Part shown: piece after piece, positions 33,725-41,951 of the stretch
Layout: each line of letters opens with the position of its first letter
Numbering within the stretch: the first letter of the stretch is position 1
Made by a program: the position numbers and the translations under genes
Assembly (NCBI GenBank): GCA_025558095.1
Contig: JAIVFI010000018.1
Coordinates: 620,001-684,000, forward strand
DNA length: 64,000 nucleotides
Direction of reading: 5' to 3'
Source of the DNA: Hyaloraphidium curvatum
Taxonomy: Eukaryota > Monoblepharomycota > Hyaloraphidiomycetes > Hyaloraphidiales > Hyaloraphidiaceae
Notes under the pieces: generated by a model
The model's input: only the letters and a program-made list of their open reading frames with translations
The model's database searches: none
Told to the model about the DNA's origin: nothing

Positions 33725-34987
33725 CTACCCCTCCCCCTTGCTTTCGGGCTCCACCTGCAAAGTATGCACCAGCTTCGCCCCCTCCGGGACCTCGACCATC
33801 CCCTGCCTCCTGCCCCACTCCTCCACCAGCGCCGCGACGTAGCACCGCACGTTCTCGTCCCGCAGGTGCCGGGCAACAAAGTCCCTCCCCTCCCGCGCGA
33901 TCGCGGCGACCTTTTCCGGGTGCGCGTCCGCCCACGCCACTTTTTCGAGGGCGTCCGAGACGTCCGCTTTCATGGGGACGTAGTGCACCCAGGGCTTGAG
34001 CGCGGAGTAGAAGAACTCCGAGAAGGGCGAGGACTGCTTGAACACCGCGACGCCGGCCGCCAGCAGCGCCCCGAACCGGGACGCCCACCCGTTCCCGTCG
34101 ATGGATGCGACGTACCTGTAGCGCCGCACCCAGTCCTCGAGCGGCAGCGCCGGCTTGGTGCCGAGGGTGGCGTTGGCTTCCGCGACCGTGGAGTTGGACA
34201 TCTGCACGTACTTGACGATGCCGCCGTCGCACTTGCCCGCCGCCTCGGGCCGGGAGCACATTTCGGCGAACCGCATGCGGGGGAAGGTGCGCCAGTCGCT
34301 GCCGGCGGGGCAGCACATGTAGCCCGTGCTGGAGCCGCGGAAGAAGAGCGTGGGCTGCTTGGCGCCGAGGGGTTTCTCCGACCCGGCGCGGCGCATGCTC
34401 CCGCGGACCCCGTCGAAGTTGAGGAAGAAGTCCGGGTACGGGAAGTGCGCGCCGCCCGTGCCGGACACGGGGCCGTACATGAGGTGCGGCGGGCGCGGTG
34501 CGGATCCGGGCACGGTCCAGCCGGGCAGCCAGTACCGGGTCTCGGATCCCGGGTCGAGCCGCGAGACGTCGCGGAGCAAGAACGGAAGGTCGGCGCGCAG
34601 CCCGCGCGGGTCGACCTCGGCGGCGTGCCATTCCAGGGCGGCGGCGAGGAGGGCGACGATGCCGTAGGCGCGCTCCTTTGCCAGGGGGTTCGGCGAGGCG
34701 GAGGTGGAGAGGAAGATGGCGGTGCCGTTGAGCGTCAGGCGCGCGGTGTAGTCGGGGGAGAAGAGGCGCGCGGGGAGCCGGTCGAGGGACGCATCGGGGA
34801 GCGTCGGGAAGGGGGCGAGGTCCGTGGCGATCTGGCCGATGTACGGCACCGCGCAGGCCGGGTGGTCAAAGGCCGAGGGTGCGCGGGGGGGAGCGCCCAC
34901 GGGCGGGGGGGTGAAGGGGAGCGCGAGGAGCGCGAAGGCAGCGAGCGAGAGCGCCGAGAGGGCGCCGAGGACGCGCCGGCGGTCCAT
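33725..34987 (-). CDS. GT90-family (CAP10-like) glycosyltransferase
   Basis: 420 aa, no introns, starting at MDRRRVLGAL with an N-terminal hydrophobic anchor (LSALSLAAFALLALPF). The GT90/CAP10 core is clear: FFLNFDGVRGS, LFFRGSSTGYM, YRYVASIDGNGWASRFGALLAAG, VFKQSSPFSEFFYSALKPWVHYVP and KADVSDALEKVAWADAHPEK. Family members are Golgi beta-xylosyl- or O-glucosyl/xylosyltransferases; the sugar here is not determinable. It is 257 bases downstream of RIC1 on the same strand and divergent from the GT61 gene, with 274 bases between starts. A broken copy of its C-terminal region lies at 36761-36823 on the other strand. Confidence 0.88.
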   Translation of the reverse strand: MDRRRVLGALSALSLAAFALLALPFTPPPVGAPPRAPSAFDHPACAVPYIGQIATDLAPFPTLPDASLDRLPARLFSPDYTARLTLNGTAIFLSTSASPNPLAKERAYGIVALLAAALEWHAAEVDPRGLRADLPFLLRDVSRLDPGSETRYWLPGWTVPGSAPRPPHLMYGPVSGTGGAHFPYPDFFLNFDGVRGSMRRAGSEKPLGAKQPTLFFRGSSTGYMCCPAGSDWRTFPRMRFAEMCSRPEAAGKCDGGIVKYVQMSNSTVAEANATLGTKPALPLEDWVRRYRYVASIDGNGWASRFGALLAAGVAVFKQSSPFSEFFYSALKPWVHYVPMKADVSDALEKVAWADAHPEKVAAIAREGRDFVARHLRDENVRCYVAALVEEWGRRQGMVEVPEGAKLVHTLQVEPESKGEG

Positions 34988-35261
34988 CGACCGGCCGGTC
35001 CCGTGCCCCGAGAACGCGATCCGGCGGCAGCCAGTCTGTGGGTGGCCTATTGATTCGTGACTCGGGACGTCCAGAACTGCCGCCTGCGCGTGGCGACTCG
35101 GCGGGGCGGGCGCCTGCTTGGTGTCCCAACGGGATCATCTGGATCTGCTAACCGGCGCCGCCAGCCGGGGCTCGCTGCGTCTGTTAGTTGTTTGTTTGAG
35201 GCGCGTCATCCCCTGCCCAGTAACTGCCCAGACTCAGACCTCTCTCGCGCGCGCGTCCGCG

Positions 35262-36644
35262 ATGCTCCCGCCGGCGCGGATCCTGCTGGCGATCGCGGCG
35301 TCCGCGTTCGTCGCGCTCGCGGCGCTCCACCGCGGCGGGGCGGGCGCGGCGGTGGAATGCTCGGGGACGGCGCGCGAGACGGCGCGCTGCGTGTTCCGCG
35401 ACGCCGTCGTATCCAACGGCACGCTCCATTATCTCCATTTGGGCAACAGCAAGCCGCCGGATCTCCCTCCCTTGCTGTGCTCGGTCGCCAACCAGCCGCC
35501 CGAGCTCGCCGTCGACTGCGTCGTGCGCGCCGTGCGGGACCCAACCGAGTGGGCCGCCCTCACAGCCGGCGCACAACACGCCAAATTCGGCGTGCTCATG
35601 GCCCGCCTCAACCCCACCAACCTGTACCACATCTTGTTCGAGGAGGTCGTCCCCGCGCTGGCCGTGGCGTGGGACGCCGATCCCGCCGCGGGGAGCACCG
35701 AGGACCTGGCGGTGTTTGCCGCCGACGCCTTCGGGCCGGGGCACCTGGACGAGAAGGTGTTCAAGGGCCTGCTGCCGCGGGTGAAGCTGGTGCACAGGAA
35801 GGGACCACCCGTCAGGGTTGGGCGGCTCGTGGTTGGGACACGAGCGTCCTGTGCGCACTGGGGCCATTGCACGTTCGCCAACGGGAGTTCCCGCACCTTC
35901 GAGCCTCTCGATGCCGCGGTGCTCGTGCGCCGCACCGTCTTTGCCGCCCTCGGACTCCCCGAACCCCCTCCCGCCTCCTCCCCGCGGATCCACCCGCGCA
36001 TCACGATCGTACAGCGCAGCCGCACCCGCGGGTTCGCCCCGCACGCCCTGGCATCCATGAACGCCACCCTCGCCCGCATCGGCGGCCGCCCCCCCACCAT
36101 CGTCGATTTCGCCTCCCTCGACCTCCCCGCGCAGGTGCGCCTGGCCGCGCAGACGGACATGTACGTGCTCGTGCACGGCGCCGCGCTGGGCCACGCCATG
36201 TTCCTCCCGCCCGGCTCGGTGCTGATGGACGTGTACCCGCACGCCTTTTTCGTGGAGCACAACATCCTCGTGCCCTTCATGCTGGCCTCGCTGGCGCCGG
36301 GCGTGCGGATCGGCCACTTCCCGTTCCAGATCCGCGGGACCGCCGGCCAATCGAACCTCCTCGGCCCGCTGCGGCCCAACTGCACGTGCAAGGACTACAT
36401 GTGCGAGGTGAAGAGCTTCTGGGCCGCCGACCGGCTGGCCCCGGACCCCGCGGCATTCGCGCGGCGCGCGGCGGAGGCGGCGGATGCGTGGCGGAGGGCG
36501 GATTACCCCAGGCCGAGGACGCAGGAGGAGCACGGGAGGTACCTGGGGGACCTGCATGCGCAAGGGGGTGGGTGGATCGGAGGCGAGCCGCAGTGCTGGA
36601 CGGACGCGGACGAGGAGGAGAAGAGGGCGAGGGGGCTCGGGTGA
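35262..36644 (+). CDS. GT61-family glycosyltransferase
   Basis: 460 aa from the ATG at 35262, which puts a hydrophobic anchor first (ILLAIAASAFVALAALH). GT61/DUF563 signatures: MARLNPTNLYHILFEEVVPAL, RITIVQRSRTRGF, QTDMYVLVHGAALGHAMFLPPGSVLMDVYPH and an EHNILVPFM stretch. Family members transfer xylose, arabinose or GlcNAc onto proteins or glycans in the secretory pathway; the activity here is not determinable. Paired C-terminal cysteines (CTCKDYMCEVKSFW). No introns. Divergent from GT90; the two may share a promoter and act on the same glycan, which is inference. Confidence 0.85.
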   Translation: MLPPARILLAIAASAFVALAALHRGGAGAAVECSGTARETARCVFRDAVVSNGTLHYLHLGNSKPPDLPPLLCSVANQPPELAVDCVVRAVRDPTEWAALTAGAQHAKFGVLMARLNPTNLYHILFEEVVPALAVAWDADPAAGSTEDLAVFAADAFGPGHLDEKVFKGLLPRVKLVHRKGPPVRVGRLVVGTRASCAHWGHCTFANGSSRTFEPLDAAVLVRRTVFAALGLPEPPPASSPRIHPRITIVQRSRTRGFAPHALASMNATLARIGGRPPTIVDFASLDLPAQVRLAAQTDMYVLVHGAALGHAMFLPPGSVLMDVYPHAFFVEHNILVPFMLASLAPGVRIGHFPFQIRGTAGQSNLLGPLRPNCTCKDYMCEVKSFWAADRLAPDPAAFARRAAEAADAWRRADYPRPRTQEEHGRYLGDLHAQGGGWIGGEPQCWTDADEEEKRARGLG

Positions 36645-37198: not shown

Positions 37199-40100
37199 AT
37201 GACGCCCATCTCCCCCAACGCCCGGGCGGCCTTCGAGCCCCCGGCCGCCGGGGACGCGCCGGCGCTGGGGTCCCCGCCGAGACGCAAGTGCTCGTGCGAC
37301 AAGTGCGCCCGCAAGGCATCGCACGTCCCCGTCAACGATGCGGGGCGGGGGAACGCCGGGGCCGGGGATGGGACGCCTGGAGTGGCGATGCCGGCGCCGG
37401 CCGTTGTCGCCCTCCCCGCCCCGGCAGAAGAGCCCCCGCTCCCAGTGCAGCAGGAGCCCTCCCCCTCGCAACCCTTACAGCCCTTACTATCTGCAACCGG
37501 CTCGGACTCCCAGCCTCCTCCCGTCGAGTCGGCCCCCGTCGTCGCCAGCGCCCCGGAACCGCCCCACGCCGCCGCCCCGCACAAGCCCTCCCTGAAGCCC
37601 GAGCAGCTGCTCGAGGAGATCATCATGCAGGTGCGGAACGAGTCGGCAGTAGAGCCTGATCCGGCGCCGGAGCCGGAACCGGAACGAGAAGGAGGGGAAA
37701 AGAACGAACATCCGGAGATGCTGGCGCCGCCGCCCAAGCAGGAGCTCCCGACGCCGCCGCCGGTGGATGAGCAGAAGACGTCCGCCAACGAAATGCTACT
37801 GGCCAGTGCCTACGGAGCTGCGATTGCAGTGGAGCAGGGACTTCAGCCGGCTGCGGTAACCCCTGTGCCCGCATCCATGCTCGACAGGCTGGCGCAGCCC
37901 AAGATCGTGTGGGTTCCTCTGGCCCCGAAGGAAGTCAGTGTTAGCTGACGTACCACAGTCTCTTGGTTGCCCTCGCAGCGCTCGTGTGCTCCATAGCCTG
38001 TCTCATCGCACTGGTGATCGAGCTGACCAACTTTCAAATAAGGTTCGTAACCCTTCTGGCTCTCCCGTCGCGAGGGCCCCGTGTCCTGACTCCGCCAACG
38101 CAGGGCTAGAACGCAGCCTCTCCAGGCCGCCCAGATCGTCGGCTCCCTTACGGCCGCAACCATCGACGGCTCGCAGGTCCTGGGGGTGCTCAACGCGACG
38201 GTCGTCGAGGCCACGAACGTCGTCGGCGAGCTGTCCAACGCCACTATTGCCGCCGCCTCCGTTGTCGGGCTGGCTTCTGTCGTCGAGGACCTCCACGACG
38301 GCATCGACACCGTGAAGGAAGGCCTCGCCGCCCCGATCCCCGCGGCCAGGATCACGGGCCTCCTCTCGAACGCAACCATCCCCGGCTCCTCCGTCCTCGG
38401 CGACCTCTCCCTCTCCACCATCCCCGCCTCCCGCGTGCAGGGCCGCCTCATCAACGCCACCCTGGACGCCAACCGCGTCCGCGGCCGCCTGACGAACTGC
38501 ACCATCGACGCCGAGAACGTGGTCGGCATGCTGACCAGCGCGAGGATTCCCGCCGAGCGGGTGAGGGGATCGCTGGACTGCGCGACGATCCCGGGGGGCA
38601 GCGTGATGGGCGATCTACTGGGTGCGACGATAGGAGCCGGTAGGGTGATAGGGAGGATCACGAACCCCGTGGAGGCGGCGGGGGTGCAGGGTGTGCTCTC
38701 GTCGGCGATCATCCAGGGCTCGAGGGTGTTTGGCGACCTGACGAACTGCACGATTTCGGCCGGCCGCGTGGTCGGGGAGCTCGATGACGCGACGATCGCC
38801 GCCGGGAGGGTGGTCGGCCTGGAGGCGGTCGCGGTGCCTGCGGCCAACGTGCAAGGGGACCTCTCCAACGCCACCATCCACGGCAGCAGGGTGCGCGGTG
38901 GGAGGATCAATGTCACTGTGGACGCCGCCAACGTCGTCGGGGAGCTGACGGGGGCGACGATCGACTTTTCGCGCGTCACCGGGGTCCCTCCGCCCGAGGC
39001 CGTCAACGCCTCGACGCTCGTGGGGATGCTCAACGCATCGCAGATTGCGGGCCTGGACGCACTGGAGATCGACGGGGCGCAGATCACCGGCAGCTTGGAT
39101 GCGGCGCGGATCTCGGGCACGTTCGTGTCGGCGACCATCCCCGCTCAATGCATCACGGGGGCCATCAACGCCGGACAAGTCGAAGGCAGCTTTGCATCGG
39201 CCATCATCCCAGGGAGCATGGTGACGGGCACGATTTCGGCGGGGCAGATTGTCGGGAACCTGGCGTCGGCGACCATCGACGGGTCTCACGTAACGGGAGC
39301 TCTCAACGCGGCGCAGATCACGGGAACTTTCATGTCCGCCACGGTCAACGCCGCGCAAGTGACCGGGCCCATCACGGCCTTGCAAGTCACGGGGTGCCTG
39401 AGATCGGCCACCATTCCCGGCAGCAGGATCGGTGGACTCATCAATGGCGCGCAGGTCACCGGCACCATCTCCGTCGATGCCGTTTTCGGGTCCGTGGATG
39501 CTGCCCAGGTCACTGGGACTTTCCTGTCGGCCACGATCGCGGGCGCACAGGTGACCGGGGCGATCGATGCCGGCCAGGTCAGCGGTGTGCTTTCCTCCGC
39601 TACGCTCCCCGCGAGCCAAATCACCGGGATGATCGCCGCATCGCAAGTCACGGGGACGTTTACTTCAATGACCATCTCCGGGGCCCAGGTGACAGGCAAC
39701 ATTGACGCGGCACAAATCAGCGGCACCCTCTCTTCGGCAGTGGTTCCCGCGACCCAGATCAGCGGATTGATCGATGCTGCACAGATCTCGGGCACCTTCT
39801 CTTCCTTGACGATATCGGCTGCCCAGGTGACCGGCAGCATCGATGCGGCGCAGATCAGAGGCATCCTCTCGTCGGCGACGATTCCCGGATCCCAGGTCAC
39901 AGGCAACATGGCCGCAGCCCAGATCACAGGGACCTTTTCGTCTGTAACCGTGCCGGCAAGCCTCGTTACGGGTACCCTCGCCTCGGCCACCGTTCCGGCC
40001 GGGCAGGTCACGGGCACGCTGTCCAATGCCGTCGTGCCCGCGGCGCAGATCACGGGGACCATCCCCGCAGCCAGCATCAGCGGAAACCTCGACAACGCCT

Positions 40101-40339
40101 TCATTTCGGGCAGCAACGTCGGGGACCCGATCCTCATCCTCAACGCCCTCGGTCTGTCGCGCGCCAACACAGCAACCTTGAACGCGCCCTTCGGGGGATC
40201 CCTCGCGTGCCCCGGCGGGACGATCCGCATCGGCAGCTGCCCGGAGGTGACGGGCGGGTGCTTCCTCCTCTCATCGGATGCGGTGACGTGCGATTACGGA
40301 GGGTTTGGGTGCCCGCAGCTGACGACGCTTTGCGCATGA
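37199..40339 (+). CDS. Membrane-anchored tandem-repeat (beta-solenoid-like) surface protein
   Basis: Exons 37199-37908, 37959-38042 and 38104-40339 give 1009 aa. Residues 1-236 are low-complexity, rich in Pro, Glu and Ala, with a small Cys motif (RKCSCDKC). Splicing then creates one clean membrane helix (IVLLVALAALVCSIACLIALVIEL, from about residue 236). The rest, about 700 residues, is a degenerate tandem repeat. Units start with Gly and end in a beta-branched residue plus T/S. The first part is mostly 14-mers such as GRLTNCTIDAENVV. The second part alternates 14-mers (GTFSSLTISAAQVT) with 9-mers (GSIDAAQIR). A short Cys-rich domain (CPGG..CPEVTGGCF..CDY..CPQ..CA) ends the protein. Many N-x-T sequons suggest an extracellular repeat. 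I recognise the style from bacterial and phage fibre proteins but no named family. Confidence 0.85.
38136..40115 (+). repeat. Tandem 42-nt then 69-nt (42+27) coding repeat
   Basis: Coding repeat of the solenoid protein. About twenty units of 14 codons come first, interrupted once at about 38265-38350 by a non-repeat helical segment. From about 39040 the array switches to a 23-codon period made of a 14-codon plus a 9-codon unit. Near the end three 14-codon units run consecutively. Units are diverged at DNA level, so recent slippage is not obvious. Confidence 0.85.
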
Positions 40340-40477: not shown

Positions 40478-41686
40478 TCAGTGCTCTCCCAACCGCGGAG
40501 CCCCGCCAGCGATCCGCGGCCGCTCCCCGTCGATCGTGAACGGCATCCCCGTGAGCGCAAAGTCCTCCCCCGGCACGGCCTGCTGCACGCCGAGCTCGCG
40601 CACCTGGGGCTCCTGGAGCACCTCGGCGAGGCTGTTGATCGGCGACGCCGGGACACCGAGGCGCTGCAGCACCGAGAGCCAATGTTCCCGCGGCTTGGAG
40701 GCCAGGATGGGTCGCAGCTCGGCAAAGAGCGCGGGCTTGTTGCGGAGCCGCGCCCGGTTGGTCGCGAACCGCTCGTCGGTGACCCAGTCCGGGCGACCGC
40801 AGGCCTCGGCCACGCGGGCAAATAGCCGGTCGTTGCCCGCGCAGATAAGGATGGGCCCGTCCGACGCGTCGAAAGCCTCGTAGGGGCACATCATTGGGTG
40901 CCCGCTGCGGTGCTTCTCGGGCAGCTTGCCCGTGTTGACGAGCTCGTCGGCCTTTTGGCCGCCCCACATGAGCGCGGTCTCCAAAAGCGAGCCCTGCACG
41001 ATGCCGCCCTTGCCCGTCGCGTTCCGCCGGTGAAGCAGAGACAGCATGCCGATCGTAACCCACATGGCCGTACCTTGGTCGCAGAGCGAAGCCGCGGAGC
41101 GGATAGGGGGATCCGACTCGTCGCCGTTCAGCGAAGAGAGGCCCGAGTACGCCTGGATGAGCGGCTCATAGCCTGGTCTTTTGGCCAGAGGTCCGACAGC
41201 ACCGAAGGCGGATATCGACGCGTGGATGAGCCGCGGGTGGCGCGCGACCATGGACGGCCCGTCGATGCCGAGCTTCACGTCCGTTCCCGGCTTGACGTTG
41301 TGAACAAAGAAGTCGGCCTGGGTCGCAAGGGCGTCCAGGCGCGTCCTATCCAGCTTCGAGGTCAGATCCAATTCGAGGCTCCTCTTTCCGCGGTTGAAGT
41401 GGTGGAAAAAGAGCGCGTCACCGCGGCGAAACTCCTGCCCCATCCTCCGCGCGTCGTCGCCGCCGTCCGGCCGCTCGAGTTTGAGCACATCGCAGCCCAG
41501 GTCCGCGAGGATCGAGCCGACGTACGGCCCGGCAATGACCTGGCCGAGCTCAAGGACGCGCGTGCCCGCGAGCGGGCCGACGGGAACGCGTTGCGGCGGC
41601 GGCCACGCGTCACCCGCGGCACTGGCGAAACGACGGGCGCCAAAAGCGTGCGCCGCAACGCGCGGCAGCGGAATCAGCCGCGGCAT
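40478..41686 (-). CDS. CoA-transferase family III (CaiB/BaiF) protein, mitochondrial
   Basis: 402 aa, no introns. The start at 41686 gives a typical mitochondrial presequence (MPRLIPLPRVAAHAFGARRFASAA). The family III fold is clear from GTRVLELGQVIAGPYVGSIL, ADLGCDVLKLERPDGGDDAR, NRGKRSLELDL, KLGIDGPSMVARHPRLIHASIS, GYEPLIQAYSGL and IVQGSLLETALMW. The D in SLCDQGTAMW is in the position of the catalytic aspartate of the family. The order and length resemble SUGCT-like succinyl/glutaryl-CoA transferases, but the acyl donor cannot be read from sequence. Divergent from the SDR gene with 265 bases between starts. Confidence 0.88.
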   Translation of the reverse strand: MPRLIPLPRVAAHAFGARRFASAAGDAWPPPQRVPVGPLAGTRVLELGQVIAGPYVGSILADLGCDVLKLERPDGGDDARRMGQEFRRGDALFFHHFNRGKRSLELDLTSKLDRTRLDALATQADFFVHNVKPGTDVKLGIDGPSMVARHPRLIHASISAFGAVGPLAKRPGYEPLIQAYSGLSSLNGDESDPPIRSAASLCDQGTAMWVTIGMLSLLHRRNATGKGGIVQGSLLETALMWGGQKADELVNTGKLPEKHRSGHPMMCPYEAFDASDGPILICAGNDRLFARVAEACGRPDWVTDERFATNRARLRNKPALFAELRPILASKPREHWLSVLQRLGVPASPINSLAEVLQEPQVRELGVQQAVPGEDFALTGMPFTIDGERPRIAGGAPRLGEH

Positions 41687-41951
41687 TGTCTCCCGCGGCC
41701 GCTGTTTGGTTGTTGGCGGAACTGTTCCTTTGAAGCCGCTGGTGAATCCCACCCCAATGGCTACAGCGTGGGGTTACTAGGCTTGCTAGTCAGGGTATGG
41801 ATTGCTGTCGGCACCGTTTTGCCACTCGTCTTCGAAGTGGCGCGGATTCGGAGGCGGCGCCAATCTCGCGCGCGCGCGGCGGGCCGGCTGACGCCAAAAC
41901 TCGGGAAGCGGATCCCACTCCTCCCGGTCGCAGAGCGGGCACCTTGCCACC

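What the first reader, a model, noticed from the sequence alone, without database searches (positions are those of the whole stretch)
37199..40339. Membrane-tethered solenoid with a switch from 14-residue to 14+9-residue repeats
About 700 extracellular residues consist of Gly-initiated units ending in V/I plus T/S. The first half is built of 14-mers; from about 39040 it alternates 14-mers and 9-mers (23-residue period). The switch implies that a five-residue piece can be added or dropped per coil. Together with the N-terminal cytoplasmic tail, single helix and Cys-rich cap, this looks like a new type of eukaryotic adhesin or fibre.
Basis: partly seen in the sequence, partly recalled or inferred. 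Interest (0 to 1): 0.8.

Follow-up and report, generated by a model that had tools for sequence, protein, structure and literature searches.

The report
Fungal membrane-tethered beta-repeat surface stalk
A chytrid-like fungus appears to carry a long cell-surface stalk built from two alternating short repeat lengths, resembling repeats seen in viral fibres, but its three-dimensional shape and its job are not yet known.

Summary
A three-exon gene (37199-40339, +) encodes 1009 residues: Pro-rich tail, one transmembrane helix, about 750 residues of repeats ending in a six-Cys cap. The first part repeats every 14 residues, the second every 23 (14+9), far above shuffles. The 9-mer fits the 14-mer minus residues 3-7. 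Same-residue codons are no more alike than codon usage predicts, so the repeats are old. All 10 ectodomain N-glycosylation sequons lie in the 14-mer part.

The organism is Hyaloraphidium curvatum. Two further genes carry the cap and a few 14-mers behind a signal-like peptide and Cys-rich leader: a shuffled extracellular module.

Not unique: P0002, an undescribed ENA protein, also alternates 9 and 14, and phage tail proteins have weakly similar units. The fold is not shown: AlphaFold is all-beta, pLDDT 71-83 over residues 81-160 of the last-exon frame (14-mers) but about 45 for the 14+9 part. 'Solenoid' and 'adhesin' remain inferences.

The parts
37199..37908 (+). Exon 1: 235-residue Pro/Glu-rich N-terminal tail with a CxCxxC motif, presumed cytoplasmic; no second copy in the genome at E <= 0.001
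   Evidence: topology inferred
37909..37958 (+). Intron 1, 50 bp, GTGGGT...CTGAC...CAG
   Evidence: inferred from sequence and frame
37959..38042 (+). Exon 2: most of the transmembrane helix (residues 236-259; its first codons are in exon 1)
   Evidence: only hydropathy peak of the protein
38043..38103 (+). Intron 2, 61 bp, GTTCGT...CAG
   Evidence: inferred from sequence and frame
38104..40339 (+). Exon 3: ectodomain with repeats and cap, and stop codon
38141..39088 (+). 14-residue repeat array (nearer the membrane), with all 10 ectodomain N-x-S/T sequons, six of them at unit position 5
38267..38356 (+). 30-residue stretch without the repeat inside the 14-mer array, its last residues again repeat-like
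39089..40120 (+). 14+9 (23-residue period) array; no sequon, few charges (0 K, 1 E, 9 D, 4 R in 344 aa)
40121..40336 (+). C-terminal cap (72 aa) with six cysteines that are invariant in the two paralogues

Best explanation
A type II (signal-anchored) cell-surface protein of Hyaloraphidium curvatum. The Pro-rich tail stays in the cytoplasm, one helix crosses the plasma membrane, and a rigid beta-rich stalk of 14-mers and then 14+9-mers carries a disulfide-bonded cap outward into or through the wall. Units are chains of hydrophobic residues spaced 5 residues apart, with one 4-residue step across the glycine, so a unit can lose one five-residue step (14 to 9) and stay in register. The proximal half is N-glycosylated; the distal half is bare and almost uncharged and would do the contacting or self-association. 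Shown: repeats, the five-residue difference, sequon distribution, cap conservation, and the same module behind a different N-terminus. Inferred: topology, fold, actual glycosylation and disulfides, place in the wall, and adhesive or wall-contact function.
For: Gene model and single helix. Periods far above shuffles. The pattern that picks units forces Gly 1, position 3, and position 13 (14-mers) or 8 (9-mers), so these are no test; the unforced position 8 of the 14-mers is hydrophobic in 24 of 24 (background 29%), and unforced positions two before a hydrophobic are small in 21 and 20 of 24 and 14 of 16 (background 49%). 9-mers score best as 14-mers lacking residues 3-7: mean +9.56 bits; with forced positions kept and the rest shuffled, the best of 5000 sets was +3.0; 3-7 wins 1999 of 2000 bootstraps. 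First-part sequons 10 against 2.5 expected, reached by 0 of 20,000 shuffles; second part with cap 0 against 3.2, P 0.025. Same codon for same residue 0.388 (14-mers) and 0.426 (9-mers), expected 0.409. Six cap Cys invariant in 3 of 3 genes. All-beta models.
Against: Structure models are weak: mean pLDDT 46.6 (717 aa) and 45.3 (161 aa); 73 of 717 and 0 of 161 residues reach 70. Charges flanking the helix (read by eye) do not clearly favour one orientation, and the tail also holds one sequon, at residue 147. Over the whole ectodomain the sequon excess is modest (10 against 5.9, s.d. 2.1). Taken one by one, the 16 9-mers split between neighbouring deletions (6 for 3-7, 6 for 2-6, 4 others), and against first-part 14-mers alone the fit is only +1.5 bits. 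The only relatives with a suggested function are phage tail proteins. No transcript or protein evidence.
Confidence: 0.58

Rival explanations
1. Structural wall or self-assembling (amyloid-like) fibre protein: the almost uncharged distal array packs against other copies, and the protein builds the cell surface rather than binding a partner.
For: Distal array has few charges and no sequon; Foldseek's first PDB row is a curli subunit, but at E 1.0, not significant.
Against: Membrane tether and cap fit a stalk at least as well; the fold match is not significant.
Confidence: 0.17
2. Captured viral fibre: the repeat array came from a phage, giant virus or similar and was tethered to the fungal surface.
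For: One of six database relatives, P0003, carries Peptidase_S74 and matches tail PHROGs; some phage hits are GpJ or virion proteins; four viral models at E <= 0.001 in the fold search, but with TM-scores up to 0.19 only.
Against: Two introns inferred; neighbours with Pfam hits are GT90, GT61, CoA-transferase and P450 (4 of 8 ORFs scanned); no Peptidase_S74 in the genome at E <= 1; cap shared with proteins bearing a leader common in this genome; three IMG/VR scans without a confirmed relative. Short repeats can converge.
Confidence: 0.1
3. Flexible or disordered low-complexity spacer without a defined fold.
For: pLDDT below 50 over 517 of 717 residues and 140 of 161.
Against: Hydrophobic register, kept residues with randomised silent sites, strands rather than coil in both models, block means of 71-83 over 80 residues.
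Confidence: 0.1
4. Ice- or mineral-binding flat-faced solenoid using stacked threonines.
For: Position 7 is Thr in 19 of 24 14-mers.
Against: No TxT consensus as in insect antifreeze proteins (recalled); tether and cap unexplained.
Confidence: 0.03

Closest known systems
P0002, undescribed 787-aa protein from an ENA contig of 2834 bp
   Same: Runs of 9,14,9,14,9,14 units; autocorrelation peak at 23: 0.154 over the whole protein (shuffled maximum 0.124), 0.276 in residues 361-640, a stretch I chose by eye
   Different: No Pfam hit at E <= 10 or PHROG hit at E <= 0.01; different ends; organism unnamed; no function known
Phage tail proteins with glycine-anchored short units (DSS3_VP1 and DSS3_PM1 host specificity protein J; P0003 with Peptidase_S74)
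   Same: Units of similar wording (such as GTLAASQI)
   Different: Weak matches: E 8e-4 and 9e-4 with the whole frame, 3e-5 to 9e-5 with the 14+9 stretch (DSS3_VP1 is held under two accessions); P0003 and P0007 have a 17-residue period, P0005 25; virion parts rather than membrane-anchored
YadA-type left-handed parallel beta-roll (PMC9543794, passages read)
   Same: 14-residue layers; surface adhesin
   Different: YadA_head profile absent from the genome at E <= 1; no outer-membrane barrel; the passages seen describe 14- or 15-residue layers with rare insertions or deletions, no 9-residue ones
Candida glabrata Awp1-type beta-helix wall proteins (PMC8746771, abstract and section list read)
   Same: Fungal cell-surface protein with beta-helix (solved there, only suspected here)
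   Different: Those are GPI wall proteins (section heading); here an N-terminal helix anchor, no hydrophobic C-terminal tail and regular short repeats
DFJ74DRAFT_664016 (P0008) and a second gene on contig C10 of the same genome
   Same: 14-mers plus the same six-Cys cap, 52 and 53% identical over the aligned part
   Different: Signal-like peptide and Cys-rich leader instead of tail and helix, and only a few units

Membership tests
YadA-type beta-roll / trimeric autotransporter | Matches YadA_head profile PF05658 | tested here: not met
   0 matches in the genome at E <= 1; control rings in 3 of 14 genomes, over the cut-off in 1. The Pfam scan of the frame at E <= 10 lists only Asp_protease at 0.22. 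Short profiles are insensitive
YadA-type beta-roll / trimeric autotransporter | Left-handed beta-roll fold | tested here: inconclusive
YadA-type beta-roll / trimeric autotransporter | Anchored by a C-terminal beta-barrel | tested here: not met
   Read from sequence: one N-terminal helix as anchor, C-terminus a Cys-rich cap
YadA-type beta-roll / trimeric autotransporter | Homotrimer | not testable with these tools
   Only monomer prediction was available
Phage_fiber PF03335 (14-position repeat) | Profile match at this gene | tested here: not met
   Two matches below the cut-off elsewhere in the genome (E 0.864 each), none here. A 14-position profile is insensitive
Pentapeptide repeat proteins | At least eight contiguous pentapeptides, four per coil (PMC8145042, abstract start in the search listing) | tested here: not met
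   A four-residue step comes after every one or two five-residue steps; no Pfam hit
Awp/Hpf-type fungal beta-helix adhesins | GPI anchor, needing a C-terminal hydrophobic tail (recalled) | tested here: not met
   No 19-residue window above 1.6 apart from those starting at 230-246; no GPI predictor was run
Triple beta-spiral fibres | Homotrimer with beta-spiral shaft | not testable with these tools
   Only monomer prediction was available
H. curvatum repeat-plus-cap family (three genes) | Six-Cys cap behind 14-mers | tested here: met

The most novel reading that the evidence does not exclude
A fungal plasma-membrane fibre whose beta-coil size is set unit by unit through gain or loss of a single five-residue step, giving a glycosylated 14-residue-coil shaft near the membrane and a bare mixed 14/9 (23-residue) shaft at the tip: a natural example of coil-size switching inside one solenoid.
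Probability: 0.25. Interest if true: 0.62.

Novelty: new variant of a known kind. Interest (0 to 1): 0.42.

Why it matters
If the array is one continuous beta-structure, it shows how a solenoid or fibre can change its coil size by five residues while keeping its core in register, which would help in understanding and designing beta-fibres. It would also give an early-diverging fungus a surface stalk unlike the GPI-anchored adhesins known from yeasts, and the same module on proteins with a secretion leader points to a lineage-specific surface toolkit.

Tried and rejected

Literature: nine searches. For Hyaloraphidium: one search listed 15 of 41 papers, whose titles are mostly about mitochondrial genomes; one search asked for only one of three terms and listed 12 of 302,103, three of which hold the name; one search found one paper, a classification review. 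None of the listed titles describes this protein; more cannot be said from these. The search for a 14/9 beta-solenoid listed 8 of 17 papers, none on such a protein by title.

A first control for the 9-mer fit shuffled all nine positions and so also broke the positions that the unit pattern forces; it was too easy, and I replaced it, with the same outcome.

Not done: transcript support, signal-peptide or topology predictors, multimer prediction, fold of the cap, search of other Monoblepharomycota genomes (the genome collections on hand are prokaryotic apart from this assembly, though the protein database does hold some fungal records).

Full report
Gene and organism. The finding lies in a 31.9-Mb, 55-contig assembly. 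A protein from a contig of 818,743 bases, the length of this assembly's contig C10, is recorded as Hyaloraphidium curvatum DFJ74DRAFT_664016, a fungus of Monoblepharomycota. Splicing three exons (37199-37908, 37959-38042, 38104-40339) gives 1009 residues without a stop. The splice sites are my inference. Of eight neighbouring frames scanned, four have a Pfam family: GT90 (33725-34987, -), GT61 (35118-36644, +), a CoA-transferase (40478-41752, -) and a P450 (50525-52183, +).

Anatomy. Residues 1-235 are Pro/Glu-rich (47 Pro, 22 Glu); no second copy was found in the genome at E <= 0.001. Residues 236-259 form the only strongly hydrophobic segment. The ectodomain begins with 14-mers, interrupted by 30 residues without the repeat, and changes at residue 594 to units alternating 9 and 14. 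The last 72 residues form a cap with six cysteines.

Is the repeat real? Yes. Lag-14 identity is 0.291 in the first part and lag-23 identity 0.424 in the second, against shuffled maxima of 0.152 and 0.173 (500 shuffles each). Of 47 unit intervals found by one pattern, 24 are 14, 16 are 9 and 7 are other lengths. 41 of 47 equal 4 modulo 5, but this is largely a restatement of the two lengths. Units of one length compared with each other share 43% (14-mers) and 45% (9-mers) of residues, yet where the residue is the same the codon is identical only 38.8% and 42.6% of the time, against 40.9% expected from codon usage. The repeats are therefore not recent DNA duplications; residues were kept while silent sites were randomised.

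The switch. Hydrophobics sit at 3, 8 and 13 of a 14-mer and at 3 and 8 of a 9-mer, that is steps of 5, 5, 4 and of 5, 4. The pattern that picked the units forces Gly 1, position 3 and the last hydrophobic, so only position 8 of the 14-mers is a free test: 24 of 24 hydrophobic against a background of 29%. Free positions two before a hydrophobic are small in 21 and 20 of 24 (14-mers) and 14 of 16 (9-mers), background 49%. Scored against a profile of the 24 14-mers, the 16 9-mers fit best when residues 3-7 are removed (mean +9.56 bits; next 2-6 with +7.7). With the forced positions kept and only the free ones shuffled, the best of 5000 sets reached +3.0, and removal of 3-7 wins in 1999 of 2000 bootstraps. 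Taken singly, 6 of 16 9-mers prefer 3-7, 6 prefer 2-6 and 4 others. The profile of the 11 first-part 14-mers alone gives the same best deletion but only +1.5 bits, so the 9-mers resemble the 14-mers of the second part much more than the proximal ones.

Two halves. The proximal part holds all 10 ectodomain sequons (2.5 expected; 0 of 20,000 shuffles reach 10), six of them at unit position 5, a seventh if an unanchored unit is counted. The distal array and cap hold none (3.2 expected, P 0.025). Counted over the whole ectodomain the excess is modest (10 against 5.9, s.d. 2.1), and the tail has one sequon. The distal array has few charges (14 in 344 residues). I read this as a glycosylated shaft near the membrane and a bare shaft towards the tip. 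Charges around the helix do not settle the orientation; the sequons and the long tail favour type II.

Relatives. In the own genome, two other places match the repeats and cap at E <= 0.001, both on C10, about 10 kb apart on opposite strands. Read by eye, they combine a signal-like peptide, a Cys-rich leader, a few 14-mers and the same cap; all six cap cysteines are invariant in the three genes. The annotated model of one of them (P0009) is in a different frame after its first exons and lacks the cap. The Cys-rich leader has 123 matches at E <= 1, 36 at E <= 0.001, some of them pieces of one gene. Outside, six proteins reach E <= 0.001. P0002 alternates 9 and 14 as here; P0003 and P0007 repeat every 17 and P0005 every 25; P0004 has no peak above its shuffles and P0006 repeats at 65-70. 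P0003 carries Peptidase_S74 and matches tail PHROGs. Against phage records, the whole frame matches 4 (host specificity protein J, virion structural protein, a hypothetical protein) and the 14+9 stretch 5 (the same J and virion records, and two Edwardsiella records at E 0.1). Homology of such short repeats cannot be separated from convergence.

Structure. AlphaFold on the 717-residue frame of the last exon with seven sequences gave mean pLDDT 46.6, block means of 71-83 at its residues 81-160, in the 14-mer part, and 35-47 over most of the 14+9 part. A 161-residue piece of the 14+9 part with three sequences gave 45.3, almost all strands. Poor alignments and monomer-only prediction are both possible reasons. 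Neither disorder nor solenoid is shown. Foldseek found nothing significant in the PDB and four viral models at E <= 0.001 with low TM-scores.

Conclusion. The anatomy and the five-residue rule are real and, as far as I could search, unusual in a fungus. The best reading is a membrane-tethered beta-rich surface stalk with a disulfide cap. Since the same 9/14 alternation exists in one undescribed protein and similar units in phage tail proteins, I rate it a new variant of a known kind, not a new category.

Noticed in passing
Own genome; e.g. L014, L015, L019, L024, L026 (loci): A Cys-rich leader (signal-like peptide, FRRSCxECP...GYPxxP...ACV...LY[KR]RY) has 123 matches at E <= 1 (36 at E <= 0.001; some are pieces of one gene). 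Read by eye, examples are followed by EGF-like, Ig-like or other modules (no profile run). A [KR][KR]Y end was found by a pattern of mine in 10 of 20 loci, two of which overlap; it could be a Kex2-type site (recalled).
   Followed up: partly
window 33725-34987 (-) and 35118-36644 (+): GT90 and GT61 glycosyltransferase genes lie directly upstream of this sequon-rich surface protein.
   Followed up: no
window 37289-37306 (residues 31-36): CxCxxC motif in an otherwise Pro-rich tail; possible metal or lipid attachment site.
   Followed up: no
L004 (C10:704947-705405, -): The public gene model P0009 leaves the reading frame of the repeats and cap, so the cap is missing from the annotated protein; the genomic frame is open.
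   Followed up: partly
P0006 (437 aa, ENA): Undescribed protein with repeats of about 65-70 residues that include 14-mers and CGALPVC motifs.
   Followed up: no
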